Source: Acinetobacter sp. 10FS3-1 (GTDB lineage: Bacteria; Pseudomonadota; Gammaproteobacteria; Pseudomonadales; Moraxellaceae). Taken from it: DNA of 64,000 nt. The translations under genes were made by a program, and so were the position numbers. This document shows, piece after piece, positions 13,663 to 51,062 of this stretch. Every line of letters begins with the position of its first letter. The first letter of the stretch is position 1. The notes beneath the pieces are model-generated. The model searched no databases. It saw only the letters and a list, made by a program, of their open reading frames with translations, and was not told the DNA's origin. The stretch is from the NCBI RefSeq assembly GCF_013343215.1, contig NZ_CP039143.1:1860001-1924000 (forward strand). Direction: 5' to 3'.

Positions 13663-14701
13663 GGCTTTGTTGCACAAACCTAGCATCAAAAGCTTATTCA
13701 GCAATATAATTTCAAAATGAATAAGCCTGCCTCTAAAATCTACCGTACAACCAATTGGTCATCCTATAACCGAGCCTTAATTAACCGAGGTAATATTTCC
13801 ATTTGGTTTGATCCAAAGACTCAGTGGTATGCACAATCACAAGGCAAGCAAGGTCGAAATCAAACCTACTCCGATACAGCGATTCAATGCTGCTTAATGA
13901 TCAAATTACTATTCCGACTCTCTTTACGTATGGTCACAGGTTTTGTTCAAAGTCTGATTAAACTCTCTGGATTAGATTGGACAGCTCCGGATTATTCCAC
14001 CCTTTGTCGTAGACAAAAGCATATTGATATTGCGATTAGCTATCAAAAAAGTAGTGATGGACTGCATCTACTCGTAGACTCTACTGGTTTGAAGTTTCTT
14101 GGTGAAGGTGAATGGAAACGCAAGAAACATGGGGCTGAATATCGTCGCCAATGGCGTAAGCTTCACATTGCTATAGATGCTAAAACCCTGCAAATACGTG
14201 CAGTACAACTCACCACAAATAATGTCAGTGATTCTCAAGTACTCGAAGATTTACTTGCTCAAATTCCCTTGGATGAACCAATTGATTCTGTTTATACAGA
14301 TGGTGCTTATGACACAAAGCACTGCCGACAAGTCATTTTAGATCGAGATGCACATGCGATCATTCCACCTAGAAAGAATGCAAAGCCTTGGAAGGATCAG
14401 CAAGCGAGGTCTATAGAGCGGAACGAATTATTAAAGACAGTCAAACGGCTAGGCAGATCGCTTTGGAAAAAGTGGTCTGGTTATCACCGTCGAAGTTTGG
14501 TTGAAACCAAGATGCATTGCATCAAATTATTAGGCGATAAATTAACAGCGCGGAGTTTTCCAAGTCAGGTAAATGAGATCCACGCACGCGTAGCGGTTTT
14601 GAATAAATTCACAGAATTAGGTCGCCCGCATACCCAAGTTGTCTCTTAAATTTGGATTACTTAGAGGAGTTCAGCCTTTCAAACCTTTATGCAACAAAGC
14701 C
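13663..14701 (+). mobile_element. IS17/ISAba12-like element (IS5 family, IS903 group), 1039 bp
   Basis: Ends are GGCTTTGTTGCACAAA on the left and TTTATGCAACAAAGCC on the right. Flanked by the perfect 9-bp direct repeat ACCTTAGAC (13654-13662 and 14702-14710), so this was a simple transposition into the porin gene, apparently recent. Confidence 0.93.
13717..14649 (+). CDS. IS5-family transposase
   Basis: 310 residues starting MNKPASKIYRTTNWSSYNRA, with DDE residues in LLVDSTGLKFLGEG, VYTDGAYDTK and the C-terminal YHRRSLVETKMHCIKLLG (the Y-(2)-R-(3)-E-(6)-K signature of IS4/IS5-like enzymes). It is one residue different from the copy at 22434-23366 (V versus I near the end). Intact and probably active. 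Confidence 0.93.
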   Translation: MNKPASKIYRTTNWSSYNRALINRGNISIWFDPKTQWYAQSQGKQGRNQTYSDTAIQCCLMIKLLFRLSLRMVTGFVQSLIKLSGLDWTAPDYSTLCRRQKHIDIAISYQKSSDGLHLLVDSTGLKFLGEGEWKRKKHGAEYRRQWRKLHIAIDAKTLQIRAVQLTTNNVSDSQVLEDLLAQIPLDEPIDSVYTDGAYDTKHCRQVILDRDAHAIIPPRKNAKPWKDQQARSIERNELLKTVKRLGRSLWKKWSGYHRRSLVETKMHCIKLLGDKLTARSFPSQVNEIHARVAVLNKFTELGRPHTQVVS

Positions 14702-19764: not shown

Positions 19765-22381
19765 TTAAACAATTAACAAATCTTTTTCGATATCACTTTT
19801 CCCACGCATTTCAGATTCGTCATCTAGCCATTCTTTATGTTCAACATCATTAACTAAACTACTCATACCATGTGTAGCTGTAATCCCCATAGAATTTAAT
19901 TTTGCTTGTAATGATTGAATCATGTTAAATCTTTCAATTTCCCAGCTTGATGCAAAGCATCTCCAGAATGTCCATCCTGCACGTTCTAAAGCACGTTGAC
20001 GAATCATGTCATCATGCCATTGTTCTGGCCCATGATAGCTATCACCATCACATTCAACAGCCAAACGCTGATCACCATCTGACTCAACGACTAAATCGAT
20101 TCGATAGCTACCAACCTTAACCTGTGGAGTAACTGTGTAACCCATTTCATGGAGTGTCGTAAATACAGATTTTTCAAACTCCGATTCACACAAGTCTAAT
20201 TTTGCTTCAAATGATGCTTTTTGATCTTCTTGCAAATCATAAAAATGATTGAGTAAATTCAGCCTTAGATCTTTTGGAGATATATGATCACGATTCACGG
20301 AGTGGACAAGATACATCCTTTCACGAGCACGACTTGCAGCCACGTTAAATCTCTGTTCATGATCAGATCGACTCAAAGCATGACAATTCTCAGGATCTGC
20401 TACCATAGATAAGAAAATAATATCTCTTTCTGCACCCTGAAATGCTGAAGCATCTCCACAAGCAAATTGAACCTTAGTAAGAGTTCCTGCGCCAAACTCA
20501 TTCAAAGCTTCTGATTGAATGAACTCAGCCTGTGCTGGACCTAGCAACGAGATCACGCCAATTGATCTATTCGTATATCGTTCATCTTTAATAAGTAGCT
20601 TCATTTCCTCAATAATTGCTTTCGCTTCTATTCGATTAATATGTTTGCTGTTTTTAGATTCTCTATACCCCTGCGGGGTATAAATTGCGACTAAAGCTGG
20701 GCTTAACTGCTCAGACTTCTTCGATAGTCGCATTGGCTTAATACGGTTACCATAAAAGTTTTTATTACTATAACTAATGATTGCAGGATGACAGCGGAAA
20801 TGCTCTAGAAGCATCACGCTTGACTCATAGATAGAAGAAGCCATGTCGTATAAAGACATATCTGGTGTTAAATATGCAGCATGTGGCTGACCATGTAGAT
20901 AACGATTCCTTAATACATCAATTTGAGCACTTGCTAGGCCGACATTACTCGGAGAAACCTGCTTATTATCCCCCACAACTAATAACTTTTTAGCACGCAT
21001 TAAAACGGGTAATACGTCAATTGATGATTGTGATGCCTCATCCACAATCACTAAGTCAAAGAGCCCTAATTCAGCAGGCATAGATTCAGATACCTGAAGA
21101 TGTGACATGACCCAGCAAGGAATAGCTGCTGTTGCCTCTTTAAGGGCTACTTGAGCATCTTTTCTATAACGTGGAGCATTCTTACCTGTCCCTTTTCCAT
21201 AGTGTTGTACAGCAATTTTATAACGCTGTAATGCAACTAAAATTTTGTCTGAGGCATTTTCCTTTAATGCCAGCCATGTCTTATTTGCTGCCAATTGAGC
21301 GTAATTTTGAGATAGATTCTTCTCGTGAATACGACGGCGCTCATACAAATTTTCAATTTGACCTGTATTACTGATGGCCATTACAAAAATCTCAAGACGT
21401 TTCCACTCCCAAGCCTCTAGCAGTGTATTACGTAATACAGGATCCTCAATTTCTTCAGCGTACGGAATTTCAAGAATGTCTTTACTAACAATCAAAGCAT
21501 TTGTTTTACTCAATCTAATACTGGCGGATTTAACTCTTTCAAAATCTTCAGTTAGATCTTTTAAATGTGATAATTTTTTTAATAGATCAGCATACTCTCC
21601 AAGTTCACTTTCATATAATGAATTGGAATCAATCTGAGATACAATTTTTTGTAACTGATTTGATATCTTATTACCAAACTCTGATAAATAAAGGATTTGA
21701 TCAGCCAGTTGTTGTTGATAGACTTCTAAATTAAATATTTTTAATTTCTGCCCTAACAATTGAATCAAGTCATCAATATTTTTAGGTAATCCGTAGAAAT
21801 CAAAAGATTTAGCTCTCTTAAAAACTTTTAGATAATTCGCATTAAATAAATCCAAATATTTATTTTTTAAATCTAGGCATTTTTGGGTTCTACTGATGAG
21901 CTGGGTGAACTCTTTTAATATTTCATCGATATTACGATTATTTAACTCAATTAAAGGAATGTCTAATTGTGCGGCAATACTATTCCATTTGCTCATAAAG
22001 ACGTTAAGAGTCTGCCTTCTATCAAGATATTCTTTAAGTCTTTTCCATTCATCCGATGTATCAGGATATTTTCCAGAAACTTTAATTGACTTAAAAAGGT
22101 CTTGTAACTCAGCAGTACCAAAATGATACCAATTAAATGGCTTACCTGTATCAACAGCACGTTGAACAGCTTGATATTCTTTTGAGTTTGGTTGTATCTC
22201 AAAATTCAGCTCTATAGGATCAATTAGTAGCGTTTTCCTGTATTCCAATAAAGGCTGAACTTCTTGAATAAGGTTACTATAGATATCAAGTTCCATAGCC
22301 TTATCTTCTGAATTTATCTTTTTGAAATAGCTCAATAACCATGGTTCTGCATGATCAAGAACAAGGTTTAGATCTTCTAGA
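19765..22381 (-). pseudogene. SF1 helicase with C-terminal nuclease domain, 5' end lost
   Basis: About 870 residues remain. They carry SF1 motif II (DLVIVDEASQSS, near residue 460), motif III (VVGDNKQVSP), motif V (FQGAERDIIFLS) and motif VI (RFNVAASRARERMYLV). A C-terminal restriction-like domain has YRIDLVV...AVECDGDSYHG followed by RQRALERAGWTFWR, as in MTES_1575/DUF559-type modules. No Walker A (GxGK[ST]) motif is present: it was on the missing N-terminal part. An open frame continues 50 bases into the adjoining IS but only by chance. Related helicase-nuclease proteins often act in defence against foreign DNA; this copy should lack ATPase activity. Confidence 0.8.
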
Positions 22382-23420
22382 GGCTTTGTTGCATAAAGGT
22401 TTGAAAGGCTGAGTTCCCTTAAGCTACTCAAATTTAAGAGACAACTTGGGTATGAGGGCGACCTAATTCTGTGAATTTATTCAAGACTGCTATGCGTGCA
22501 TGGATCTCATTCACCTGACTTGGAAAACTCCGCGCTGTTAATTTATCGCCTAATAATTTGATGCAATGCATCTTGGTTTCAACCAAACTTCGACGGTGAT
22601 AACCAGACCACTTTTTCCAAAGCGATCTGCCTAGCCGTTTGACTGTCTTTAATAATTCGTTCCGCTCTATAGACCTCGCTTGCTGATCCTTCCAAGGCTT
22701 TGCATTCTTTCTAGGTGGAATGATCGCATGTGCATCTCGATCTAAAATGACTTGTCGGCAGTGCTTTGTGTCATAAGCACCATCTGTATAAACAGAATCA
22801 ATTGGTTCATCCAAGGGAATTTGAGCAAGTAAATCTTCGAGTACTTGAGAATCACTGACATTATTTGTGGTGAGTTGTACTGCACGTATTTGCAGGGTTT
22901 TAGCATCTATAGCAATGTGAAGCTTACGCCATTGGCGACGATATTCAGCCCCATGTTTCTTGCGTTTCCATTCACCTTCACCAAGAAACTTCAAACCAGT
23001 AGAGTCTACGAGTAGATGCAGTCCATCACTACTTTTTTGATAGCTAATCGCAATATCAATATGCTTTTGTCTACGACAAAGGGTGGAATAATCCGGAGCT
23101 GTCCAATCTAATCCAGAGAGTTTAATCAGACTTTGAACAAAACCTGTGACCATACGTAAAGAGAGTCGGAATAGTAATTTGATCATTAAGCAGCATTGAA
23201 TCGCTGTATCGGAGTAGGTTTGATTTCGACCTTGCTTGCCTTGTGATTGTGCATACCACTGAGTCTTTGGATCAAACCAAATGGAAATATTACCTCGGTT
23301 AATTAAGGCTCGGTTATAGGATGACCAATTGGTTGTACGGTAGATTTTAGAGGCAGGCTTATTCATTTTGAAATTATATTGCTGAATAAGCTTTTGATGC
23401 TAGGTTTGTGCAACAAAGCC
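22382..23420 (-). mobile_element. Second IS17/ISAba12-like element, 1039 bp
   Basis: Same length and ends as the copy in the porin gene, reversed. The 9-bp flanks differ (TCTTCTAGA versus TTAACAAAC), so there is no target duplication. Both flanking genes are truncated exactly at its ends, which points to a deletion by recombination or adjacent transposition rather than a clean insertion. Confidence 0.92.
22434..23366 (-). CDS. IS5-family transposase
   Basis: 310 residues, nearly identical to the transposase at 13717-14649. The DDE motifs and Y-(2)-R-(3)-E-(6)-K signature are intact. The near-identity of the two copies indicates recent spread within this genome. Confidence 0.93.
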   Translation of the reverse strand: MNKPASKIYRTTNWSSYNRALINRGNISIWFDPKTQWYAQSQGKQGRNQTYSDTAIQCCLMIKLLFRLSLRMVTGFVQSLIKLSGLDWTAPDYSTLCRRQKHIDIAISYQKSSDGLHLLVDSTGLKFLGEGEWKRKKHGAEYRRQWRKLHIAIDAKTLQIRAVQLTTNNVSDSQVLEDLLAQIPLDEPIDSVYTDGAYDTKHCRQVILDRDAHAIIPPRKNAKPWKDQQARSIERNELLKTVKRLGRSLWKKWSGYHRRSLVETKMHCIKLLGDKLTARSFPSQVNEIHARIAVLNKFTELGRPHTQVVS

Positions 23421-24192
23421 TTAACAAACTAATAGCTGTGAGATAAATTTGTTTAATTTGGTATGGTTTATCGAGATAGACTAAATTCGCATATTTCTCA
23501 TTTTCTACTGGATAATTATATAAGTAACCCGTTTTTGATGAACCTTTACGATATAGGGATACAAGTCCACTCAACAATTCTGATGGTTTTAACTGATCAT
23601 TTGAAAAATATGCTCTGAGTGACCTTAGAATCGCCATTAAGTCCTCTTTATAACTACACCCACAATCAATAACTAGTGCTATTAAAAATTGTCGAAGAAG
23701 TAATTCCTTTTGCTCATCCGTAAAATCAGCATTAAAAACATCAGTTTTAAGCCTTTTCGGTAATTCAGTCTCCCAAAAGAAATGCAACTTGAGCTTAAAC
23801 TCATGTAACCTTTGCCCTCTAAGCAACTTAATTTGCGTTGATTCAATATCTTTAATATTTGGAGCTGAATATGCTCTTTGAATAAGCTTAATTTCATATT
23901 GATCCTTTAACCACGGTATTTGTGACTCTATTTCTTGCTTTTTTTTCACACATAATTCAGACCAATATCCCCTTAATTCTTCCAAATCTTTTTTTGAGAT
24001 TTTCCTATTGCGAAAGTATTTCTCTACTTTAGCTCGATTCGAATACATTTCGTTTTGAATAAGATCATCAAGTTTCTTTTTTTCACAAGATTCCGTGATC
24101 TCATGGATAAGAAATTCTGAGATTTTTTCAAATAAAACATTCGTCGAAGACTCTAGCTTAGTTCGAATTTTTTGTAACTCTTCATCTTTCAT
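23421..24192 (-). pseudogene. Third gene of the recombinase module, 3' end lost
   Basis: The start ATG at 24192 overlaps the stop of the recombinase gene by ATGA, so the genes are translationally coupled. About 257 native residues remain, charged and helical (for example KKDLEELRGYWSELCVKKKQ and LLRQFLIALVIDCGCSYKEDL). The native sequence ends at the IS boundary after YLTAISLL, and the last codons to a stop at 23374 are IS-derived. No catalytic motif is visible in what is left. In comparable modules a second recombinase-like protein occupies this place; whether that holds here cannot be told without the missing 3' part. Confidence 0.65.
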
Positions 24193-25596
24193 GATTGGCT
24201 CACCACTGATTTTAATCCCAGTCTTTTAAACAGCTGATTTACTGCATCTTGAATTTCAATCATGTAGGTGTAGGGCTGTAAAGATGAATATTTTGAAAAT
24301 CCGATCTCATTTTGTTGATCGTGCGCATACCAACTCTTAAAAATCGCATCAGGCAATTCCAGAAAATTCCTTACAAAATGGCGCGTCCAATTGGGATATA
24401 ACTCATCAATTTCAGGAAAGTTTTCTGATAAATAAGATGCTATATGCTTTTGTGTAAGTGGCTCCAATGTGAAGCTCATGAATTCTGAACCTTTCTTCCA
24501 ATAAGAAAGGTAATAGATATGATCTGCTGTATTAGCTAGCTCTAAGGCATTAATGTTTTTGATAAATTCATCATAATGCTGTAACTCATTAACAACGAAT
24601 TCGATCAGAGGTGAATAACGACCATGTGGACGAGATCTACTGCTCTTATCATGGATATATGCAATATTAGTAATAAAATCAAAATTTTCTCTGATACTAG
24701 ATGCACCTATAGCAGGACGTGCACCTGAAGACAATAGACAACAAAACCAAATCCAAACACTGAAAGCATTAAATTTTTCAGCAATGTCTTGTTCTTCTTT
24801 TAAAACTTGGACAACTTTCAAGTTTAATGTATTTAAGAATTTTTTCGCTTTATCAAATGACCATACACGCTGACTTCCTACGCGGGCTTGCTCTTCTACT
24901 TGAATAAATTGCGGACGATCTAAAACATTTACCTCGTTTTTATTTTGAAACCATAGATATATATACTTCTCATATACCTCATTTAACTGTTTATAAGAAA
25001 ATCCCCCATACGCTAGATCAGGTTGATGTGAAACCTGTCTACCGATTAAGAAATTTTTCGTAAGATCATCTTTACATATACGGTTCAAATGAAAGGAAAG
25101 TTGTAAAGCAATTGAAGTAACTGATATCGGGCCTATACGACGATGATAAAACCATTCTGATAAAGATTTTTCGAAATCTGTATTCGTTAGATTGGAAAGG
25201 TTAGCCTCTCTAATTCTATCAATCCACATAGCAGGAATTTGAAATGCCCAAGTTGTATGCTCGTTATATTTATTGTCTTTTTTAGCAATTTGACCTTTCA
25301 AATTTTTATTTAAATTTGCATCAACGATCCACAAATAATAGGCACGATTGGAGCTACGTTTTAATTGCTTAGTTTTTAGCAATTGGTCGATATCTTGAAA
25401 TATAACGGCACTCTGCCCGGTAAAGATTGACATCAAGCAACAAGCTGCTTTTGCAGATTCCATGATATCTTTGTTTTCATGAAGTTGGTCAAGTAAAATC
25501 TGGTTTACAATTTTTAATAAGGGTATGTCCAAATAGTAAATATTACTCACCGTTGGTTGCTGAGTTGTAAGCGTCCGCTGAATCCCATACCAATTT

Positions 25597-27222
25597 TTAA
25601 TTCGATTTAGGTTTCCAGCAGTGTGGCAGTAACTCTTCAATCTGGGTCACTTTATGTGTCGGCAGCCTTTTCAGCACATCACTTAAATAGGCATACGGAT
25701 CCAAGCCATTCAGCTTTGCTGACTGGATTAAAGTCATGATATTCGCCGCTCGCTGGCCGCTGCGCAGCGAGCCAGCAAACAGCCAGTTCTTGCGCCCTAA
25801 GGCCCAAGGTCGCATTTGATTCTCTACCCAATTATTGCAAATCGGTAGATTGCCATCATCCAAATAGCGGCTTAAAGCTGGCCAACGCTTCAGAGTGTAA
25901 TTGATGGCCTTGGCGGTGGGAGAACTCGATGGCACCGTCAGATGATGTTGGTTGAGCCATTCATATAGTTGTTGCATCACTGGTTGACTATGCTGTTGTC
26001 GGTATTCGCGGCGGTCTTCCGCTGTACCATCGGTCTTTTTCCTGAGCTCTGCTTCTATCGCATACAGTTTCTGAATCAGCACTAATGCCTGTTCAGCGAC
26101 CTGACTTTTCCCAGTTACATGCAGTTCATGGAATTTACGACGTGCATGGGCCATGCAGCCCACCTCAATGACCTGGCCTGATTTAAAGCGTGCTTTATAA
26201 CCACTGTAATCATCACAGACTAGATAACCCTGCCAGCCTTTCAAGAACTCTGCAGCATGCTGGCCTGAACGACTATCCTGAAAGTCATAGATCACCGCCT
26301 GAACTGGATTGTACTGTGTAGTGGCATAGGCCCAGACATAACCTTTCTTCGGTTTTTTATCATTCTCACCCATCCGCATGATGGTGACCGGTGTTTCATC
26401 TGCATGCAGCACCTGCTGTTGTAGTACCACCTCTTTTAAGGCATTGGCCAGAGGCTCCAGTTCTACACCGCAGCGACCTATCCAGTCAGATAACGTTGAT
26501 CTAGAAAGCTCGATTCCCGCCCGCTGATAGATCAGACGCTGACGGTACAGCGGTAAATGATCGGCATACTTCGATACCAGCACATGGCTGAGCAGTTCAG
26601 GTGAAGCAATGCCTTTATCAATCACATAGGCAGGCATCGCTTGCTGAGTCAGGGTGTCACACTGATCACAGACCCATTTGCCACGGACATGCTGTTCCTT
26701 GTAGAACTGTGCCGGTCTGAAATGCAGTTTTTCACTGATATCTTCGCCGATACGACGTAACTGGCAGCCACAACTGCATTGGGTTGATGCAGGTTCATGC
26801 TCAATACGGATGGTGTGTAGATGATCGGGCAGCAGTCGACGTTTAGGTTTATTTGCTTTGGCTTTGTGTGTCGCTGCATCGGTTTTATCTGCATTCAGCC
26901 GTTCCAGTTCCAGATCAACGGCTGCAATATCTTCTTCGACCGCTTCATCCCAAAGATGGATTTGTTTTGCAGTGAGATGTTCGTTTTTACTGCCGAATTT
27001 GTGCTGTTTAAATAGTGCGAGTTCATGCTCGTATTTTTGATTGAGAATAGAAAGATGTTGAACTTTAGAATCTAATTGCTGATTGGTGACTTCAAGATGT
27101 TGAACTCTGGCATCTAATTGCTGGTTTGATTGTGCTAGAGACTGATGCTGCAGCGCCAACTGCCTGGTGAATTCCAGCAGTTGTTCATGGGTCAGTTGGC
27201 TTAAGTCAGGCAGCGTATTCAT
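25597..27222 (-). CDS. tnpC: IS66 transposase TnpC
   Basis: 541 residues. An N-terminal coiled-coil leucine/glutamine-rich region (repeated LDARVQHLEV-type heptads, residues 20-75) is followed by a Zn-ribbon (CSCGCQL ... CDQC) and the DDE catalytic core (HADETPVTIM, VCDDYSGYK, CNNWVENQMRPWALGRKNW). It ends HCWKPKSN just inside the terminal repeat. It appears intact. Confidence 0.93.
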   Translation of the reverse strand: MNTLPDLSQLTHEQLLEFTRQLALQHQSLAQSNQQLDARVQHLEVTNQQLDSKVQHLSILNQKYEHELALFKQHKFGSKNEHLTAKQIHLWDEAVEEDIAAVDLELERLNADKTDAATHKAKANKPKRRLLPDHLHTIRIEHEPASTQCSCGCQLRRIGEDISEKLHFRPAQFYKEQHVRGKWVCDQCDTLTQQAMPAYVIDKGIASPELLSHVLVSKYADHLPLYRQRLIYQRAGIELSRSTLSDWIGRCGVELEPLANALKEVVLQQQVLHADETPVTIMRMGENDKKPKKGYVWAYATTQYNPVQAVIYDFQDSRSGQHAAEFLKGWQGYLVCDDYSGYKARFKSGQVIEVGCMAHARRKFHELHVTGKSQVAEQALVLIQKLYAIEAELRKKTDGTAEDRREYRQQHSQPVMQQLYEWLNQHHLTVPSSSPTAKAINYTLKRWPALSRYLDDGNLPICNNWVENQMRPWALGRKNWLFAGSLRSGQRAANIMTLIQSAKLNGLDPYAYLSDVLKRLPTHKVTQIEELLPHCWKPKSN

Positions 27223-27296
27223 GACCGCAGTATGCCTGAGGTCATGAGAAGAATGAAATAGAACGTTTGGAGAATAGCAGAATGGAACAGCCTGGT

Positions 27297-27632
27297 TTAA
27301 AGCATCGTCACCACCTGCTGTCGTCCAATGCGCTGCCAGGGCAAACCTTGGATCAGTGCCTGTAACTGTTCCGGGCTGAGGGCCACGCTTTCACCTTGGT
27401 GAACTTGAGCCCAGTGAAATTTGCCCTGTTCCAGCCGCCTGGCACACAGCCAGATGCCCAATCCATCATGTACCAGTACTTTCATGCGATGGCCACGTTT
27501 ATTACAGAACAGGTAAGCACAATGCGGTTTGATGTAGCCAAAGGCTCTCACCACCTGAGCCATGGTCGTATCCATACCTGCACGCATGTCCATGGGCTGA
27601 GTAGACAACCAGATTTCATCAATGCGGATCAT
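27297..27632 (-). CDS. tnpB: IS66 accessory protein TnpB
   Basis: 111 residues from MIRIDEIWLSTQPMDMRAG; the start at 27632 overlaps the tnpA stop by ATGA. It contains the conserved LFCNKRGHRMKVLVHDGLG segment of IS66 Orf2 proteins, required for transposition but of unknown biochemical role. It is unrelated to the IS200/IS605 TnpB nuclease. Confidence 0.9.
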   Translation of the reverse strand: MIRIDEIWLSTQPMDMRAGMDTTMAQVVRAFGYIKPHCAYLFCNKRGHRMKVLVHDGLGIWLCARRLEQGKFHWAQVHQGESVALSPEQLQALIQGLPWQRIGRQQVVTML

Positions 27633-28012
27633 GTTGCAAGTGCCTTGAGTAATTCTGCCAAGGCAGGTATTTCTGATGTCTGCCATTTTAGCTGAATATC
27701 ATTATTCGTATGAGGCACGGTGATACACAACGTGATCCTCTCATCAATAGGTTGGCTGATTGCAGCAGTGTAAGGCAAAGCAATAAATGCTGGATTCACA
27801 TGAGTAGGATCCTGCACGGCACCCTCATGATGGCTGAAGATCCTGATCCAACGACTGACAAGGTTGGCATTAATACTATGTTGCAGTGCGACCGAAGCGA
27901 TCGAGGTATTAGGATTTTTGCAGGCATTGACAATACTGAGTTTGAATTCTTTGCTGTATGTTCTGCGTTTTTTAGCAACAGGAGGTGTTGCTGAATATAT
28001 ATCCATGTTCAT
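27629..28012 (-). CDS. tnpA: IS66 accessory protein TnpA
   Basis: 127 residues with an HTH_Tnp_1-like N-terminus (RRTYSKEFKLSIVNACKNP) typical of IS66 Orf1. First gene of the three-gene transposition operon, coupled to tnpB. Confidence 0.88.
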   Translation of the reverse strand: MNMDIYSATPPVAKKRRTYSKEFKLSIVNACKNPNTSIASVALQHSINANLVSRWIRIFSHHEGAVQDPTHVNPAFIALPYTAAISQPIDERITLCITVPHTNNDIQLKWQTSEIPALAELLKALAT

Positions 28013-29057
28013 GGATTAAGTCCCCACTTGTTTTTAGGTGGGAACTAAATTAAGGCTTATAGGATCGCTTGGTAAGGCTGTGTTAGCCGGATGCTTACGC
28101 TGAGTTCTATCTATATGACGATTCAATCTTTGATTTGAGACAAATGGTGCTAGTCTACGCGTATCTTCATTTAGATTATAATCATACTGCTTAGAAGTCT
28201 TATCTTCATCGACTTCATCATCAATGTTATCTTTGTCATCTGAGTAATCAAACTGGCTCTCGGTGACCAAAGGCGGATTATGATATGTCTGCGGATCAAC
28301 GTCCAAATCGTCTATATTCTCAATCTCATCCGTCTTTTTAATTCTTACATTGTTGTGATAAAAGATATCCTCAACTGCAATTCTGTACTCGTCTAAATAC
28401 CTTGTTAGAGCTTTGATTATATTTTCTGAAACATTAACATCAAGGCCCTTACAGAATTCTGTGACATCTACATTTTGGGCTTTTGCATACGTATTGAACT
28501 CTTTAATGGTCTTAGCTGTATGATCGAACTCAATAAGATGATTAAAATATTGAGAAACTATCGGCAATACTTCGAAAATAAAATCCTTAAAACTTTTTCC
28601 CATCATTTTTAAAATTAGATAGAAATTATAGTTTAGCCTTTCAATTTTATTTTGAGAGTTCTCCATATTGGACATCAACACAATTAAAAAATTTACAACA
28701 TTAAAAATTTTTAAAATATTTTGGTTAATCGAAAGTTGTTTTTCTTTATTTATAACATCCGAATCTTTAACATTTTTATATAAAATGCAGATACTTGATG
28801 ACCCTAAAATACTTTTATATTGGGTTTTAGCTTTATTTATGTTTAAATATGAATATATACCTTCACATAAAACTTTTAATTCCCTCATAAATTCATCAGT
28901 CATATAAGTATTATGAAAATCTTTTAAATCACATGATTCTAATAGAAGCAAACCTTCTCTATATGAAGATAAAATTTCAGCTAAACAAGCACACCTTGAT
29001 TTAAAAACTTCTAAATCTAATTTATTATTCATTTCAGCATTCCACAATATCAACTTT

Positions 29058-29573
29058 CTATTTTTCAAAAATATTTCTAGGTAATTTAAAATAATTTACA
29101 AAATCTGTTTTATAAATTATTTTAGGAATATGATATTTATCCCTCTTCAAGATTTCCTTATTAATTAAATAAAATAAATTTTCATCTTCTAATTTAGTTA
29201 AATAATCAAAAAGTTCCTTATAGAAGTTAATTCTATATTCACATTTTATTTTGTGACTTTGAAGATAAGTAAATAGCTCTGACCAAAAAATATAGTTAGC
29301 TTGATTCTTAAACCAATCTTCATGACTTTTAGCTTCAATAGATAAAAGATACGTATGTTGTGTAAGACTCAAATAGTCTTTCTTAACGCGAGTAATCATT
29401 GAATTTTTCAGTCGATCTTTTGCATTTTTTTGATCACCTACCTCAACATTAGTAAGCTTTATTGTCTGGTCGATTATGTCGGAGAATTTTCTTAGCGAAC
29501 TTTCAGTTAATTTGTCTTGTTTCACACAAGATAGCTTAGAACTCTTCTTTGGTTTAGCTTGTTTTTTGGACAT
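29058..29573 (-). CDS. First gene of the recombinase module, unknown function
   Basis: The start MSKKQAKPKKSSKLS at 29573 is chosen for the TTGGAG upstream; a longer frame to 29627 is less likely. 171 residues with a basic N-terminus (many Lys/Ser), then helical and Tyr/Phe/Lys-rich. No known motif is recognised. It ends within the leader of the recombinase gene (11-bp overlap with its TTG frame), so it is transcribed and perhaps translated with it. Very AT-rich. By position it could be a DNA-binding accessory factor, but that is only a guess. Confidence 0.6.
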   Translation of the reverse strand: MSKKQAKPKKSSKLSCVKQDKLTESSLRKFSDIIDQTIKLTNVEVGDQKNAKDRLKNSMITRVKKDYLSLTQHTYLLSIEAKSHEDWFKNQANYIFWSELFTYLQSHKIKCEYRINFYKELFDYLTKLEDENLFYLINKEILKRDKYHIPKIIYKTDFVNYFKLPRNIFEK

Positions 29574-29715
29574 TATTAGCTCCAAATTCATCATTCTAAA
29601 AATTTCATAAAGGCTTTTTTTGAGCATGAGAAATCTTAGGACCTAAATCTCAATCAAATTTAAGCTAATGATATTTTTAAAAAATCAATTATAAATTTTT
29701 TCTGGATGAGCTAGC

Positions 29716-29775
29716 TTTTCTTGTTATTGCATGTCTTTTTTATATCAAATGCAATAAGCATTAATAACAAGAAAA
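29716..29775. repeat. Nested inverted repeats upstream of the recombinase operon
   Basis: 13-bp perfect arms TTTTCTTGTTATT / AATAACAAGAAAA (29716-29728, 29763-29775) enclose a second inverted pair ATTGCAT / ATGCAAT (29726-29732, 29749-29755). The structure lies between the AlpA-like gene and the first module gene. It could terminate the former, or be a recombinase or regulator binding site. Confidence 0.5.
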
Positions 29776-29790
29776 ACTGTCTCGATTTTT

Positions 29791-30003
29791 CTAGGCCTCT
29801 TCTTCGACACCAGCAAATTTGTAGACTTCCGCCTTACTCCAACGAAGAGTACGTCCATGTCTAATAGGATTAATTGGGCCATTTTCATATAAAGCCCACT
29901 TACGTAAAGTCTGTTCTGCATACCCTAAAAGCCTAGCTGTCTCTCTAGTGGTCAATAAAAGCCGATCATCTGTAATCGGCTTATGTTTATGCTTTAGTGC
30001 CAT
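29791..30003 (-). CDS. AlpA/excisionase-like DNA-binding protein
   Basis: 70 residues from MALKHKHKPITDD (ATG 30003, AAAGAGAG upstream). It contains a winged-helix of the MerR/excisionase kind: LTTRETARLLGYAEQTLRKWA followed by GPINPIRHGRTLRWSKAEVYKF. Such proteins control integrase expression or direct excision in satellite phages and integrative elements. It lies directly upstream of the recombinase operon on the same strand. A longer frame to 30135 is an unlikely extension. Confidence 0.8.
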   Translation of the reverse strand: MALKHKHKPITDDRLLLTTRETARLLGYAEQTLRKWALYENGPINPIRHGRTLRWSKAEVYKFAGVEEEA

Positions 30004-30112: not shown

Positions 30113-31000
30113 ATGGGACGCAATGCTCGTGGCATTTTGGAATATGCAAAAACAATTACTTGGTTTGACTATTTATTCAATGAAGCTAAAAAATTAAAGC
30201 ACTTAAACATAACAAATGATTACAAGTTTTATAAATTCATGTATTCAAATTCTAAACATTCACCTGAAGATAAATTATTTAAAAAATATAAATTTGGTTT
30301 ATCTACACCTCAAAAATCATGGAAAGAAAGCACTGAGAAAAATATACCCGGTGCAACCTGTATTATTCAACACCCTATTTGGGATATTGAAAACACAAAA
30401 TTTACATCAAATAAAATTATAAATGACATGCATAACTTATCTTCAGATATTCGCAGCTATGTAATATCCGATGGATTAGGTTGTCCACAACCCATATGTT
30501 ATCCAACACTTGAAAAAATTATTTCTTTTGAAAATCTTGATGCTATCTATTCTATATATCTTCTATATCAATGGGGATTAATTATTAATAACTATGAATT
30601 ATGTAACTATTGTGCTATAGCTCTTGAAAAAAACTTAGAAACTCTCTTATTAAATATTAGCTATTTGCATAGATCTCACATATTTTTATTCGACATAATT
30701 TTCGATAAAATTAGAAAAATATCTTATCGAGGCCTGACTATAGCTGACGTCACAAATATAAATTGGCGCCTGCTAAGAGCTAAAAATTGGATCAGTGATA
30801 TTCGAATGAACTCATATGTATCCGAATATGAGTTGTTCAAAAAATCTGTTATATCAGAAAAATTTAAAAATAAAGAAATTTACATTTCCAATTCTGATTC
30901 TTTAATATTGCATGCGAAAATTGCTACTGATCCAAATGATCTAATCACCCTTAACCTTAATAAATTTTTTCCTTCCCACATCATATTGTATTCCAACTAA
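30113..31000 (+). CDS. Unknown protein divergent from the AlpA-like gene
   Basis: 295 residues from MGRNARGILEYAKTITWFDYL. It is soluble by composition and very AT-rich, with many Ile/Asn/Lys/Tyr codons, unlike the chromosomal genes to the right. Possible metal-ligand pairs occur (CNYC near residue 165), but no known fold or active site is recognised. It shares a bidirectional promoter with the AlpA-like regulator, which suggests it belongs to the mobile module as cargo. The upstream GGAATGG gives a plausible ribosome site. Confidence 0.6.
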   Translation: MGRNARGILEYAKTITWFDYLFNEAKKLKHLNITNDYKFYKFMYSNSKHSPEDKLFKKYKFGLSTPQKSWKESTEKNIPGATCIIQHPIWDIENTKFTSNKIINDMHNLSSDIRSYVISDGLGCPQPICYPTLEKIISFENLDAIYSIYLLYQWGLIINNYELCNYCAIALEKNLETLLLNISYLHRSHIFLFDIIFDKIRKISYRGLTIADVTNINWRLLRAKNWISDIRMNSYVSEYELFKKSVISEKFKNKEIYISNSDSLILHAKIATDPNDLITLNLNKFFPSHIILYSN

Positions 31001-31254: not shown

Positions 31255-31598
31255 TTGGTAAATTCTATCACCAGATCCCCAAAGGGGCGAGCCAAGCTGT
31301 ATAGAGTGTGGCTAAAACAAAGTCATCCCTGCTGCGCCTGTCTTAAACCAGTCACCAAAGATACACCATGGCACAGCCGTCATATTGTGAAGCTAAGTCA
31401 TGGTAGGATGGATGCGGTCGCTCATCTTGAGATTTACCATCTATCTGTATTGTCCGAGGAGTGTTCAGTTTGCCAATGTCAACGAGGTATAACCGGGTGC
31501 CGAATGGCGCCTTAGAAGAGGCTTGAGCCGTGTGCTGGGAAACTCGCATGCACGGTTCTTAGGGGGTTGACGTAGGCAACTGCGTCTGACTACCCGAC
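31255..31598 (+). mobile_element. 3' fragment of a group II intron
   Basis: Codons from about 31255 to 31515 encode the C-terminal HNH part of an intron-encoded reverse transcriptase (LKQSHPCCACLKPVTKDT then WHSRHIVKLSHG). Ribozyme domains V and VI and a 3' end near CTACCCGAC follow. The reverse transcriptase core and domains I-IV are missing, so it cannot splice or move. Confidence 0.75.
31525..31558 (+). ncRNA. Group II intron domain V
   Basis: A 34-nt hairpin GAGCCGTGTGC ... GCATGCACGGTTC has the length and sequence of domain V, including the AGC catalytic triad position. It is the most conserved part of the ribozyme and is well preserved in this remnant. Confidence 0.8.
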
Positions 31599-31834
31599 AA
31601 CCAAATGCGCCCTTAGGCCTTGGGAAGTAAGAACTGGCTGTTTGTTGGCTCGCTGCGCAGTGGTCAACGAGCGGCGAATATCAAGACTTAAATCCAGTCA
31701 GCAAAGCTGAATGGCTTGGATCTGTATGCCTATGTTACCGACACATAAAGTGACCTAAATAGAAGAATTACTGCCACACCGGTGGCAACCCGACCAAAAT
31801 TAAAAAATAGGTGTGGGGTTCAGCCCACGCTTAC
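31599..31834 (+). mobile_element. Fossil of the 3' end of a second IS66-family element
   Basis: Downstream of the intron, a decayed TnpC frame reads NQMRP-ALGSKNWLFVGS and GQRAAN...IQSAKLNGLDLYAYV with stops. It ends in a terminal repeat whose reverse is GTAAGCGTGGGCTGAAC (to 31834). It differs from the intact IS66 element at 25567-28098. The intron sits exactly in the NQMRP codons. Confidence 0.75.
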
Positions 31835-32005: not shown

Positions 32006-32067
32006 AATTAAGAATAATGTTGATTTAAGCTGCTTACCATTTGCTTACCAGAATCTAAAAACAAAAA

Positions 32068-32098
32068 AACCACTTACGATTAGTACACGTAAGTGGTT
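32068..32098 (-). terminator. Terminator of the tRNA gene
   Basis: An 11-bp stem AACCACTTACG / CGTAAGTGGTT sits just beyond the tRNA 3' end. Read leftwards it runs into a T-rich tract (A7 on the plus strand). A strong rho-independent terminator. Confidence 0.8.
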
Positions 32099-32106
32099 GT
32101 TTTATA

Positions 32107-32183
<77 letters not shown>

Positions 32184-39033: not shown

Positions 39034-42000
39034 GATTTAAACTGCCTATATGGCAGTGAACTATTAGCTGGTTGTTCTGTTCGAGTAGCTTTATTTCTAA
39101 GCTGCCTATATGGCAGTGAACATTGTTCGCAATAACTACTTTGACCCACGTTTTTTCTAAGCTGCCTATATGGCAGTGAACGCAGACAATCACGATGCAC
39201 AGCACAACAATCATTTCTAAGCTGCCTATATGGCAGTGAACCATATTCGCAACTTTTCGGAATTATTCGCAATTTTCTAAGCTGCCTATATGGCAGTGAA
39301 CGAACGCGCTGAAGAATTGTTGCGCCACATGCATTTCTAAGCTGCCTATATGGCAGTGAACGCCCAGGCGGTGCCGGAATGGATCAGCGTCAATTTCTAA
39401 GCTGCCTATATGGCAGTGAACTCAAGCTCAGTTCGAATATAGATTCATCTATCTTTCTAAGCTGCCTATATGGCAGTGAACGATGAGATGAAGCAAATCC
39501 GTGTGGATGCTGATTTCTAAGCTGCCTATATGGCAGTGAACAAGGTATCAGTGATTGGAATGATGTTGTGGTTTTTCTAAGCTGCCTATATGGCAGTGAA
39601 CGACAGCTCACCCGCTAATTCTGGCTGAACGATTTTCTAAGCTGCCTATATGGCAGTGAACTAGCATAAATAAAACCCCCTCTACTTTGCTTTTTTCTAA
39701 GCTGCCTATATGGCAGTGAACACGAAGTTATATATCAACGAACTGACCCGTTCTTTCTAAGCTGCCTATATGGCAGTGAACCAGCATGCTCATAGCGGTT
39801 GTCTTTTACTACATTTCTAAGCTGCCTATATGGCAGTGAACCGGTTAAAGGCCAATCTATATCTAAAAATAGATTTCTAAGCTGCCTATATGGCAGTGAA
39901 CTTTAACTTCCGAGCTATTGCAGGCATCTATCATTTCTAAGCTGCCTATATGGCAGTGAACTCTATCACGAGTTCACGCTTAAATTTGCCAACTTTCTAA
40001 GCTGCCTATATGGCAGTGAACCATCCCTAAAAACTTGGCCGACATGGGGTAAATTTCTAAGCTGCCTATATGGCAGTGAACAAGCCCAAGCAACGTACTG
40101 GCCACTGGTGCGATTTCTAAGCTGCCTATATGGCAGTGAACACCGTAGGCCAAAACACTGCATCAATTCAGGATTTCTAAGCTGCCTATATGGCAGTGAA
40201 CTGAGATTGAATGAGCTGTGCAGCCTTGAAAAATTTCTAAGCTGCCTATATGGCAGTGAACATGTTCTTGTGAATACAAGTATCAGTTCAGGTTTTCTAA
40301 GCTGCCTATATGGCAGTGAACAGCGACAACGCTAAGACGCTCGGTATCAATATTTTCTAAGCTGCCTATATGGCAGTGAACTTCCAGGGCCACCTAAGTA
40401 AACCACCTTCGGGTTTTCTAAGCTGCCTATATGGCAGTGAACCGTACCGGTCAATGAATGTGGCATCGATGTTATTTCTAAGCTGCCTATATGGCAGTGA
40501 ACGTCAACCATCACTTGCAGTACTTCTTTGGCTTTTTCTAAGCTGCCTATATGGCAGTGAACTAAGAGCTAAGAAAACAATCATCACCGATTCTTTTCTA
40601 AGCTGCCTATATGGCAGTGAACTGAGCTGCATCGCTGCGGTATCGTTTCAGAGTTTTCTAAGCTGCCTATATGGCAGTGAACTTGCATTTACTTGGATTA
40701 TTTTTGATTTTCAATTTCTAAGCTGCCTATATGGCAGTGAACATGACGAGCTGCACAACGCTCGTATGTCGTCATTTCTAAGCTGCCTATATGGCAGTGA
40801 ACAACAACTTTGCGCATAAGGTGGGCTTCGTACATTTTCTAAGCTGCCTATATGGCAGTGAACAGATGATTAAAACCTACGGCCACCAATCCAAATTTCT
40901 AAGCTGCCTATATGGCAGTGAACGTTTAAGCTTGGCTTTTTTTCGTTCAGCCTTGTTTCTAAGCTGCCTATATGGCAGTGAACAAGTGGTTCAATTAATC
41001 GAACTCATTTCGTTCTTTCTAAGCTGCCTATATGGCAGTGAACTTATGAGATCGATTTAGACAACTCAATAGTTGTTTCTAAGCTGCCTATATGGCAGTG
41101 AACATAGCGCGACCGAACTGACTGGCAACGGTGCATTTCTAAGCTGCCTATATGGCAGTGAACCGGCTGCTTAGTGGCTCGGCAGGATTCATAGCTTTCT
41201 AAGCTGCCTATATGGCAGTGAACTAATTGATAAAGTTGGTGGTGGTATTATCGCGTTTCTAAGCTGCCTATATGGCAGTGAACAGCCTGTTTCGTCATAG
41301 TACGGGCGCTCTGACTTTCTAAGCTGCCTATATGGCAGTGAACTGGCTTTGCTGGTGATATCTTCTCAGGACGATTTTCTAAGCTGCCTATATGGCAGTG
41401 AACGGCATAAGCAAAGCACTTTCTTTTTGCTGAGTTTTCTAAGCTGCCTATATGGCAGTGAACGGCTTTAAGCCCTGTATTGGATTTTTTATATTTTTCT
41501 AAGCTGCCTATATGGCAGTGAACAAGCATGAATGTATCAAGCGTTTCCCTAACATTTTCTAAGCTGCCTATATGGCAGTGAACACACATTGCAAAGCTAA
41601 AAGACCGCCTTTGGATTTCTAAGCTGCCTATATGGCAGTGAACATATGCTTGGTAGCGGTTCCAATTCGCTTCGTTTTCTAAGCTGCCTATATGGCAGTG
41701 AACTAGCCACTAGCCTGCTATATCCACACATTGACTTTCTAAGCTGCCTATATGGCAGTGAACCCGTCTTGGGCGACCAAATGAATTAGGTTTTTTTTCT
41801 AAGCTGCCTATATGGCAGTGAACGCCTAGAAGAAATCCGCAAGAACGCGCCAGATTTTCTAAGCTGCCTATATGGCAGTGAACTAAAACTCTTTTTTCAT
41901 CTAGCCCGAAATTATTTTCTAAGCTGCCTATATGGCAGTGAACATTTTATCTCCCGATAAGCAAAAAAAATGAATTTTCTAAGCTGCCTATATGGCAGTG

Positions 42001-45000
42001 AACGGGGTCTGTTGAAGCCCCCCCCAAAACAACAATTTCTAAGCTGCCTATATGGCAGTGAACCAACGTGAATGGACACGCCTTGGCTATCTCATTTTCT
42101 AAGCTGCCTATATGGCAGTGAACATAGCTGTCTGTAATACGCTGACGGAAGGTGATTTCTAAGCTGCCTATATGGCAGTGAACTGAATGGTGATGCACTG
42201 TTTGGTGCAGTGATTTTTCTAAGCTGCCTATATGGCAGTGAACCCCCAAGACGTAAACGCCTACGTGAACAGAAATTTCTAAGCTGCCTATATGGCAGTG
42301 AACATTTGACCAGACGACCACATTTCACGATACGTTTTCTAAGCTGCCTATATGGCAGTGAACTGTTGGCGTAACTATGGACGCTCATCTGGTGTTTTCT
42401 AAGCTGCCTATATGGCAGTGAACAAGATGAAGCAGCACAAACAGCAAACGTCATTTTTCTAAGCTGCCTATATGGCAGTGAACAAACAGTACATGTTTAA
42501 AATACTTCGGCTTTCTTTCTAAGCTGCCTATATGGCAGTGAACGCAATTGCTTTGGACCGTATCATGATTGGTTTTTTCTAAGCTGCCTATATGGCAGTG
42601 AACCCTAATAAAGTCGTTGATAGTACGGATAGTAATTTCTAAGCTGCCTATATGGCAGTGAACTTTTCACCCATCAATTGAAAGCGACCCCAGCTTTTCT
42701 AAGCTGCCTATATGGCAGTGAACATGATGCGTCTGACAATACCAATGTATTGGCTTTTCTAAGCTGCCTATATGGCAGTGAACAGAAAGATGACTGAATT
42801 TATTATCAATGCAGGTTTCTAAGCTGCCTATATGGCAGTGAACCTCGCGCTTTGTATTATCACGGAAAACGTCATTTTCTAAGCTGCCTATATGGCAGTG
42901 AACGCTAAATATAGCGCGCCATTCCCTTGCGCTCTTTTCTAAGCTGCCTATATGGCAGTGAACCAACAAATTGCATCAACAGTGTCATTCTGAACTTTCT
43001 AAGCTGCCTATATGGCAGTGAACTTCACAGTAGCGAAGAAAGGCTTCAAACTGCATTTCTAAGCTGCCTATATGGCAGTGAACTAATGTGTCGTGTTGGG
43101 CGAGTTCGGCTCTGATTTCTAAGCTGCCTATATGGCAGTGAACCAATTGTAACGGGTGTGCGGAGTTTGCTAGCATTTCTAAGCTGCCTATATGGCAGTG
43201 AACCAGGCTCGTTTACTATGGCATGGTCTGCTAACTTTCTAAGCTGCCTATATGGCAGTGAACGCATGTCTATTTCTCTCTGTATGCTCGATATATTTCT
43301 AAGCTGCCTATATGGCAGTGAACCAAGCGCAACGGCTGACACCGTAAAGGCTTCGTTTCTAAGCTGCCTATATGGCAGTGAACAAGTTCAGCTTCACGCG
43401 CTTGTAATTTCTCTTTTTCTAAGCTGCCTATATGGCAGTGAACCGTAAATCGGCATTCGATGACCTGGGTGTTTGTTTCTAAGCTGCCTATATGGCAGTG
43501 AACTCCACGTTTGATGATTTATACAGCGCCGTTGCTTTCTAAGCTGCCTATATGGCAGTGAACGTGATGTATTTAGCCCTGAAATCGTGGCATACTTTCT
43601 AAGCTGCCTATATGGCAGTGAACAACGCCACCTGAAAAAAACACAGAAACGGACATTTCTAAGCTGCCTATATGGCAGTGAACAGTTGAACCCAAGCTAG
43701 ACCATGCGTTCCAAATTTCTAAGCTGCCTATATGGCAGTGAACTTTTTCGCATGATTGCGCTTGTCTAGGTATTATTTCTAAGCTGCCTATATGGCAGTG
43801 AACATAGGGAATGCAAAGCGTCCTAAGCTGTAGACTTTCTAAGCTGCCTATATGGCAGTGAACGTCACCTTCATTTCAGTAATAGCATTTGGGTTTTTCT
43901 AAGCTGCCTATATGGCAGTGAACAAACCGATGTTCGTACTGAGCGTAAGTATTCTTTTCTAAGCTGCCTATATGGCAGTGAACTGTAAGGTCTGTTTTCC
44001 GTCTACTTTTCTTTATTTCTAAGCTGCCTATATGGCAGTGAACAAATACGGCATTGAACATGGTGCGATCTAGTCTTTCTAAGCTGCCTATATGGCAGTG
44101 AACTTCCGGTTAGCTCCGCCAAGGCCGTCCGTCTTTTTCTAAGCTGCCTATATGGCAGTGAACAACACGGCCTTTAATGCGTTCGCGGTTTACCCTTTCT
44201 AAGCTGCCTATATGGCAGTGAACGAGAAATATCACTGTGTGCATTTTCTGATTGATTTCTAAGCTGCCTATATGGCAGTGAACTTGATTTTGCAGTCGCT
44301 TTCACTTCTGAATACTTTCTAAGCTGCCTATATGGCAGTGAACCAGAAGATCAAAGACAAGATTCCGCACTGTCATTTCTAAGCTGCCTATATGGCAGTG
44401 AACAATTCAACCTCATGCCTCAATGCAGCAAGCACTTTTCTAAGCTGCCTATATGGCAGTGAACTGGTTATTCCCTACTCCACTGGAACTCACAAATTTC
44501 TAAGCTGCCTATATGGCAGTGAACCACAACTTGAGCTGATTACCCAATCTCTGTCATTTCTAAGCTGCCTATATGGCAGTGAACGGGTAGTCACCATTGG
44601 TATTCAAACCCTCAGATTTCTAAGCTGCCTATATGGCAGTGAACTTTACAATTAATTACAGATAAAGCATCCTATATTTCTAAGCTGCCTATATGGCAGT
44701 GAACTTACACCTATCCGAAATCGGTGTGCATTTTCATTTCTAAGCTGCCTATATGGCAGTGAACAACAAACCCTTCCGGCACCGCCTGGGCTTTGTTTTC
44801 TAAGCTGCCTATATGGCAGTGAACGAGTGATTGGCATATGCCTCCGAGAGTCGAGATTTCTAAGCTGCCTATATGGCAGTGAACCCGCACTGTCAGGAGT
44901 ATTACGCAAAGCTTATTTTCTAAGCTGCCTATATGGCAGTGAACCTGTTGAATTAATAAACGTAACCTTAGCGGAATTTCTAAGCTGCCTATATGGCAGT

Positions 45001-47235: not shown

Positions 47236-47853
47236 TTAAAATTCGGGTACAGATGACACCGAACTTAAACCATAAGTACTAAAAACCTGAGTTTCAGATT
47301 TTTCAGCAGGTCGCTTTTCAATAAATAATTTAAAACGCTTCTTATCCTGTTCATTAGAAGTGCTTAGGCTGAGCATTTGAATATAAGGTAAATCCGTAGT
47401 TGTGATAAATTTTTGATAATGTGCTAAAGCATTTTCATAACTATAACGTCCCTTATTTGCCTCATGACGTGCCAAGCGTTCAGCATTGGTTTTAACCTGT
47501 TTACGACTATATATTGCATAGCCCCTCACTTTAGTTTCAGGTACTTCGCGAATCGAAGTAATATGCAAATAATCAGTTAAACGGTCTAGCCATTTCTTTA
47601 TATCTAACCTTTCCAAATCAGCTTCTGATTGAGCAAAAACACGTAATTTATCACCTAAATGAGCTTTAGCTTTTTGACTTCCAATCTTTTCTTCAAAAAC
47701 ATACTTTGGAAAAGCCACTCCTATATTGACCTTATTATCAATATTTTTATTTCCAGCCAGAGCAATATGCAGCTGTGTAAATAGCTTTGACCAAATAAAA
47801 TAAGGAGAAATCTCAGCCTGATCAATCAGTGTGATTTCCTGAAAATATTTCAT
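47236..47853 (-). CDS. cas6f: CRISPR endoribonuclease Cas6f (Csy4)
   Basis: 205 residues from ATG 47853 with AAGGA upstream; a TTG two codons earlier overlaps the cas7f stop. With the ATG start the catalytic histidine falls at H29, as in Pseudomonas Csy4. Also conserved are the arginine-rich helix (SRKQVKTNAERLAR), a serine-rich loop after DLPYIQM (LSLSTS), FKLFIEKRP and the C-terminal TYGLSS. It cuts pre-crRNA 3' of the repeat hairpin and stays bound in the Cascade complex. It is the gene nearest the array. Confidence 0.95.
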   Translation of the reverse strand: MKYFQEITLIDQAEISPYFIWSKLFTQLHIALAGNKNIDNKVNIGVAFPKYVFEEKIGSQKAKAHLGDKLRVFAQSEADLERLDIKKWLDRLTDYLHITSIREVPETKVRGYAIYSRKQVKTNAERLARHEANKGRYSYENALAHYQKFITTTDLPYIQMLSLSTSNEQDKKRFKLFIEKRPAEKSETQVFSTYGLSSVSSVPEF

Positions 47854-47855
47854 GA

Positions 47856-48869: not shown

Positions 48870-48896
48870 GAGTTTGATCCCCTTTTTAATACCCAG

Positions 48897-51031: not shown

Positions 51032-51062
51032 ACTTCCCCCTCGCACATTTTATATCCCCTTT

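What the first reader, a model, noticed from the sequence alone, without database searches (positions are those of the whole stretch)
23421..30003. Overlapping three-gene module built around a very large tyrosine recombinase, with an AlpA-like regulator
Seen: after removing the IS66 element, the genes 29573-29058, ~29032-24189 and 24192-23421 overlap or nearly touch. The middle one restores to 767-779 residues with the R, K, H-x-x-R, H, Y set of tyrosine recombinases. An AlpA/excisionase-like gene precedes them, and a 295-residue unknown gene is divergent. Known: some mobile elements (RIT trios, gamma-mobile-trio elements) encode several large recombinase-type proteins in one operon and carry defence cargo. 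Inference: this is a mobile module of that general sort, whose first and third proteins I cannot assign; the helicase-nuclease at 19765 may be its cargo.
Basis: partly seen in the sequence, partly recalled or inferred. Interest (0 to 1): 0.72.

Follow-up and report, generated by a model that had tools for sequence, protein, structure and literature searches.

The report
Broken Acinetobacter recombinase trio cassette
The stretch holds the wreck of a little-known three-gene recombinase operon, common in Acinetobacter plasmids and islands and also found in related genera, in which one recombinase keeps its cutting tyrosine and its partner seems to have lost it; whether it moves DNA, maintains plasmids or defends the cell is still open.

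Summary
Genes 1 and 2 and the start of gene 3 are there, gene 2 split by an IS66-like element. The "third gene" is only the first ~260 residues of a ~1,127-residue protein cut off by an IS5. Intact relatives show a conserved trio: gene 1 (small, helical), gene 2 (~770 aa, recombinase fold, no conserved tyrosine, Asn for the first His), gene 3 (~1,100 aa, complete R-K-H-R-H-Y in 46 of 46). The order small-gene2-gene3 holds in Acinetobacter and in 8 of 10 loci fetched outside it; in the other 2 gene 2 and gene 3 are fused. The window copy sits in a ~37.6-kb tRNA-Met island with its own integrase and att repeats, so the trio did not insert the island. In related islands the trio differs between conserved flanks, like a cassette. 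It misses the GMT recombinase model and differs from GInt, SE, RIT and Tsy in gene order and size. The helicase-nuclease is not supported as cargo. Best reading: a two-subunit site-specific recombination machine, activity untested; the window copy is dead.

The parts
32107..32183 (-). tRNA-Met (CAT); the island's insertion site
   Evidence: ARAGORN, Rfam
32044..32155 (-). tRNA-proximal att repeat (3' part of tRNA-Met plus terminator-like hairpin); direct-repeat partner at G000:C1:1854533-1854644, 91% over 112 bp, outside the window
31523..31834 (+). remnants: group II intron match (31523-31598) and sequence like the end of the IS66-like element (31596-31834)
30113..31000 (+). divergent 295-aa protein; relatives lie beside alpA in tRNA-Met islands, remote relatives beside Tn7-like operons
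29791..29958 (-). AlpA/excisionase-like HTH gene
29708..29783 (.). spacer with a 21-nt inverted repeat between alpA and gene 1; similar spacer in L009, L040, L044 and, diverged, L045
29058..29573 (-). gene 1 of the trio (~171 aa from the conserved start; ORF 189 aa), all-helical in the model of a relative
28082..29032 (-). gene 2, N-terminal piece (residues 1-317 of the intact relative)
25570..28098 (-).
24192..25565 (-). gene 2, C-terminal piece (residues 310-767) with the recombinase-fold domain
23413..24192 (-). gene 3, N-terminal fragment only (residues 1-260 of ~1,128); catalytic domain missing
22434..23366 (-). IS5-family transposase gene at the end of the gene 3 fragment and of the helicase-nuclease
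19765..22431 (-). helicase-nuclease (MTES_1575 nuclease, AAA_12), abutting the IS5; link to the trio not supported

Best explanation
The window carries a dead copy of a conserved operon that encodes a two-subunit site-specific recombination machine. Gene 3 is the catalytic tyrosine recombinase. Gene 2 has the same fold but apparently no dedicated nucleophile and would act as a DNA-binding, site-selecting or structural subunit; gene 1 is a small helical accessory; the AlpA-like protein would control expression or direction. Shown here: gene order, fold of gene 2, catalytic residues, fusions of gene 2 with gene 3, trios that differ between conserved flanks inside tRNA-Met islands, presence on plasmids. 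Inferred: recombinase activity, its sites, and that it serves mobility of its cassette or of the DNA beside it, possibly via circle formation. The island in which it sits is bounded by att repeats with a different, P4-type integrase. The window copy cannot work: gene 2 is split and gene 3 lacks its catalytic domain.
For: Order: gene 3 follows gene 2 in 40 of 40 gene-2 ORFs of 700 aa or more, and a small ORF precedes it in 35 of 40 (at least five places counted twice). In a second, overlapping census gene 3 follows in 45 of 45 loci and the script found a small ORF before gene 2 in 41 of 45, one of which (L137) is a piece of gene 2. Outside Acinetobacter 8 of 10 fetched loci have small ORF, gene 2, gene 3. 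Fusions: the other two, L190 (1,350 aa) and L191 (1,785 aa), match gene 2 and gene 3 in separate, ordered stretches. Gene 3: R, K, H, R, H, Y in 46 of 46 unique sequences, from 48 ORFs of 800 aa or more; PF00589 5e-8. Gene 2: Xer-like fold; a distant gene 2 (L185) reaches PF00589 at 2.8e-5, under the cut-off. Cassette: G107 is 99.9% identical to the window over 2,376 bp from tRNA-Met into alpA, then carries a gene 2 of 36% identity and, behind the trio, the conserved 96-aa ORF. Type II trios of a chromosomal island (L053) and a plasmid (L042) are 84.8% identical over 6,586 columns, the match starting at the gene 1 start codon.
Against: No recombination site, circle or clean empty site was found; the swap could be homologous recombination between flanks. 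The four full-length trios of the own genome are not near-identical copies, unlike a transposon: their gene 2 proteins are 19-49% identical. In L078, a trio-free plasmid 98.7% identical to L042 over the par region, the junction lies inside a rep gene with the rest of rep missing from L042, not a precise insertion. A right-end match to the left-end palindrome was seen only in L042/L047, which are 99.5% identical. The type III trio of G107 has no small ORF before gene 2 (L014). Profiles of gene 2 and gene 3 do not match each other significantly.
Confidence: 0.5

Rival explanations
1. The trio is a replicon-maintenance recombinase (multimer or cointegrate resolution), kept by plasmids and islands for stability rather than for movement.
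For: On several backbones it lies directly behind parA/parB-like genes (L042, L047, L048, L083, L136-L138; some ParB labels are mine, by position); usually one per record: 265 places in 250 plasmid records; the own genome's C3, C4 and C5 carry one each, of different types.
Against: Chromosomal trios in tRNA-Met islands and elsewhere need no plasmid resolution; many of the 45 loci show none of the par queries within the ~9 kb looked at; a ~770-aa tyrosine-less partner is more than XerCD-like resolution needs (recalled).
Confidence: 0.25
2. The trio is an anti-phage or anti-plasmid system that uses a recombinase fold to cut or trap foreign DNA.
For: Neighbours are often defence-type genes: BREX genes within about 3-17 kb of the trio in L040, L051/L063, L183, L186 and L187, HNH/methyltransferase pairs and HipA- and Fic-like genes (HipA label is mine); the slot varies between conserved flanks, as defence loci often do.
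Against: No PADLOC-DB hit at E 0.01 for the three proteins of L040; no brxC or WYL match in the 45 loci; BREX also occurs without a trio in the stretches L078 and L081; the catalytic set is that of a recombinase; enrichment was not tested against a background.
Confidence: 0.15
3. It is a diverged member of a known multi-recombinase element family (GMT, GInt, SE, RIT or Tsy).
For: All combine recombinase-fold proteins, some without catalytic residues, with a small protein (PMC5385486, PMC10214605, PMC10293859; parts and passages read).
Against: No GmtY match at the own trio, profile E 0.09-0.23 against one GMT locus; gene order and sizes differ; in the plasmid collection gene 2 and gene 3 match only Acinetobacter records (250 of 250 and 254 of 254), although pSEA1, which carries two SEs, is in that collection.
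Confidence: 0.1

Closest known systems
Tsy transposon and TnsF of Tn6022 (PMC10293859; passages read)
   Same: Two recombinase-fold proteins plus a small protein in Tsy; in Tn6022 TnsF has an inactivated recombinase domain and selects the target, the role proposed here for gene 2
   Different: In Tsy YRec and a small HTH gene lie upstream of TnsF; target comM; TnsF is ~500 aa with zinc fingers; here the small protein comes first, then 770-aa and 1,100-aa proteins; no comM link was looked for
SE, strand-biased circularizing integrative elements (PMC10214605; first part and passages read)
   Same: IntA/IntB recombinases, Tfp with recombinase fold lacking the catalytic motif, small Srap; reported in Gammaproteobacteria incl. 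Acinetobacter plasticity regions
   Different: Four genes in the order intA-tfp-intB-srap, small protein last; here three genes, small protein first
GInt (PMC5385486; first part and passages read)
   Same: Operon of recombinase-fold proteins, one (GinC) missing a catalytic Arg, plus small GinD
   Different: ginABCD order with the small gene last, operon at the element's 5' end; no sequence comparison made here
Gamma-Mobile-Trio, GMT (paper not held; NCBIfam NF040693 used)
   Same: Mobile trio module, described as rich in defensive and offensive systems (citing passage in PMC12715929)
   Different: In the one locus seen (L062) the order is 441, 908, 200 aa; no profile similarity
P4-type tRNA islands with AlpA (recalled)
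   Same: tRNA-Met 3'-end integration, arm-type integrase at the distal end, AlpA-like gene
   Different: The trio is an additional internal cassette

Membership tests
Tyrosine recombinase (gene 3) | R-K-HxxR-H-Y catalytic set | tested here: met
   46 of 46 unique gene 3 sequences from fetched loci; the window fragment itself lacks this domain
Tyrosine recombinase (gene 2) | Catalytic-domain fold | tested here: met
Tyrosine recombinase (gene 2) | HxxR and a conserved tyrosine | tested here: not met
   Asn for the first His 29 of 29; Y743 in 22 of 29, F or L in 7; an invariant Ser736 29 of 29
Gamma-Mobile-Trio | GmtY model NF040693 over cut-off | tested here: not met
   own genome: 2 weak matches elsewhere, none over the cut-off and none at a trio
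Gamma-Mobile-Trio | GmtX and GmtZ present | tested here: inconclusive
   single GMT locus used; hhalign E 0.22-0.23 against its 908-aa protein; GmtX not compared
SE | intA-tfp-intB-srap order | tested here: not met
   three genes, small one first where present
SE | imperfect inverted-repeat ends, strand-biased circles | not tested
   ends not defined
GInt | ginABCD order, small gene last | tested here: not met
   order differs; homology to Gin proteins not tested
RIT | three consecutive recombinases | tested here: not met
   gene 1 is a small all-helical protein
RIT | terminal inverted repeats of 34 bp | not tested
   no systematic search of ends
tRNA island with P4-type integrase | direct repeats of tRNA 3' end and adjacent integrase | tested here: met
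   att pair, and integrase at 1854794-1856059, 92-94% identical to those in the G050 and G107 islands

The most novel reading that the evidence does not exclude
A previously unrecognised class of recombination machine of Pseudomonadales: a heteromeric recombinase in which one subunit lost its tyrosine and kept R, K, R, H plus an invariant Ser, coupled to a giant catalytic partner, working as an exchangeable ~6-kb cassette that shuttles between plasmids and AlpA-marked slots of chromosomal islands. A bolder version not excluded: the invariant serine of gene 2 is a substitute nucleophile in a tyrosine-recombinase fold.
Probability: 0.3. Interest if true: 0.8.

Novelty: new variant of a known kind. 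Interest (0 to 1): 0.6.

Why it matters
A gene-2 profile matches 75 of 175 genomes of the genus at E 1e-10 and gene 2 matches 250 plasmid records, yet gene 1 and gene 2 of L040 have no match in NCBIfam (E 10), PHROGs or PADLOC (E 0.01) and nothing above cut-off in Pfam, and gene 2 is mostly annotated 'hypothetical protein' in the listed records. If the trio recombines DNA, it is a common, unstudied route by which Acinetobacter plasmids and islands are rearranged; if it does not, it is an unstudied maintenance or defence system. The tyrosine-less partner and the natural fusions give a direct handle on how recombinases become target selectors.

Full report
What is in the window. On the minus strand lie an AlpA/excisionase-like gene, gene 1, gene 2 split by an IS66-like element, and the first part of gene 3 ended by an IS5. 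Relatives of the parts are close: the gene 2 pieces match residues 1-317 and 310-767 of the intact 767-aa protein of plasmid pYUSHP14-1 (L040) at 86% and 99%, and the third ORF matches residues 1-260 of its 1,128-aa neighbour at 88%. That neighbour is annotated 'integrase' and has PF00589 at 5e-8. In A. variabilis NIPH 2171 (L009) gene 3 is open over 1,127 aa while gene 2 is interrupted by an IS66-like element at another point.

The trio as a family. Among 40 gene-2 ORFs of 700 aa or more in loci fetched by then, gene 3 follows in 40 and a small ORF of 145-227 aa precedes in 35; at least five places are counted twice because two loci cover them. In a second, overlapping census of 45 loci gene 3 follows in all; the script reports a small ORF before gene 2 in 41, one of which (L137) is really a piece of gene 2, and one of the four misses (L155) starts at a contig end. 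A profile of 29 gene-2 sequences matches 75 of 175 genomes of the genus at E 1e-10 and 15 of 293 genomes of the order, in 6 of 118 genera, at E 1e-6, two of the 15 being of the own genus. Of 10 stretches fetched outside the genus, 8 show small ORF, gene 2, gene 3 in that order, and 2 show a single long protein (1,350 and 1,785 aa) in which the gene-2 and gene-3 profiles match separate stretches in the same order. A class-wide search with a narrower profile found 4 of 369 genomes including the own. In plasmids, gene 2 and gene 3 match 250 and 254 records, all Acinetobacter.

The island. The 3' half of tRNA-Met and the following hairpin occur twice in the own genome: at the tRNA next to yebC (window 32044-32155) and at C1:1854533-1854644, 91% identical over 112 bp. 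Immediately inside the distal copy lies a 421-aa integrase 92-94% identical to those in the islands of G050 and G107; its relative L044:2912-4168 has PF00589 and Arm-DNA-bind_3. The island is therefore about 37.6 kb and includes window 1 to about 32.1 kb. The trio did not place it.

The cassette. G107 shares 2,376 bp at 99.9% identity with the window from tRNA-Met through the 295-aa gene into alpA, and then has a trio whose gene 2 is 36% identical. G096 (L052) and G107 (L046) share the left flank and, beyond different trios, a right flank of 837 bp at 90% that starts with the same GCGTTAAATAATTTAAC and a 96-aa ORF, also found behind the trios of L040, L009 and L045. That ORF matches in 7 of 175 genomes of the genus, one match being partial and one with stops; the own genome has none. 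In G022 the slot holds a decayed trio and in G012 a AAA_25 protein. Type II trios of a chromosomal island and of a plasmid are 84.8% identical over 6,586 aligned columns, starting at the gene 1 start codon. This shows exchange as a unit; it does not show who does the exchanging.

Function. The most economical reading is a heteromeric recombinase: gene 3 cuts, gene 2 binds, gene 1 helps, AlpA regulates. The fusions make joint action of gene 2 and gene 3 likely. TnsF of Tn6022, an inactivated recombinase that chooses the target, and the two-recombinase transposon Tsy are the best functional precedents (PMC10293859, passages read); Tfp of SEs and GinC of GInts are others (PMC10214605, PMC5385486, first parts and passages read). 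Membership in each was not met or not shown. Against a mobility role: no defined ends, no clean empty site, and no near-identical copies in the own genome, whose four full-length gene 2 proteins are 19-49% identical. Against a pure plasmid role: chromosomal islands. A defence role is suggested only by neighbours: BREX genes near trios in L040, L051/L063, L183, L186 and L187, but no brxC or WYL match in the 45 loci, and BREX also occurs without a trio in the stretches L078 and L081.

Verdict. A real, broad and largely unannotated gene family, represented in this window by a non-functional copy. Interest 0.6.

Noticed in passing
window 30113-31000; L129 8852-9658; L130 8653-9477; L131 8721-9572: The divergent 295-aa protein family is remotely homologous (hhalign probability 99.2, E 7e-20, 229 columns) to genes divergent from Tn7-like tnsA-tnsB-tnsC-tniQ operons (Pfam on L129), so one accessory protein may serve two kinds of element.
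   Followed up: partly
L190 6413-10465; L191 4319-9676: Natural fusions of gene 2 and gene 3 in two other genomes of the order.
   Followed up: yes
L082 15270-20977: A 222-aa protein and a 1,680-aa annotated tyrosine-type recombinase on an A. ursingii plasmid; neither matches the gene 2 or gene 3 profile.
   Followed up: partly
L127 5373-7160: In G012 the slot behind alpA at tRNA-Met holds a 595-aa AAA_25 protein instead of a trio.
   Followed up: no
L009 10576-15399: In A. variabilis NIPH 2171 gene 2 is also interrupted by an IS66-like element, at a different position.
   Followed up: no
window 31523-31834: Group II intron match joined to an IS66-like end between the 295-aa gene and tRNA-Met.
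   Followed up: no
window 13717-14649 and 22434-23366: Two near-identical IS5 transposase genes in opposite orientation; one splits an OprD-like gene, the other ends gene 3 and the helicase-nuclease (OprD name recalled).
   Followed up: partly
L042 6496-6524 and 13079-13107: Inverted repeat TTAGGCT-N15-AGCCTAA upstream of plasmid type II trios, with a second perfect copy downstream in L042/L047 only.
   Followed up: partly
window 40370-46336 and 47236-55402: Repetitive ORFs typical of CRISPR arrays beside ORFs that look like a type I-F cas operon, just outside the island (naming recalled).
   Followed up: no
L063 9124-16688: Two large ORFs (1,327 and 1,191 aa) without PADLOC match inside the BREX-bearing part of the A. 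variabilis island.
   Followed up: no
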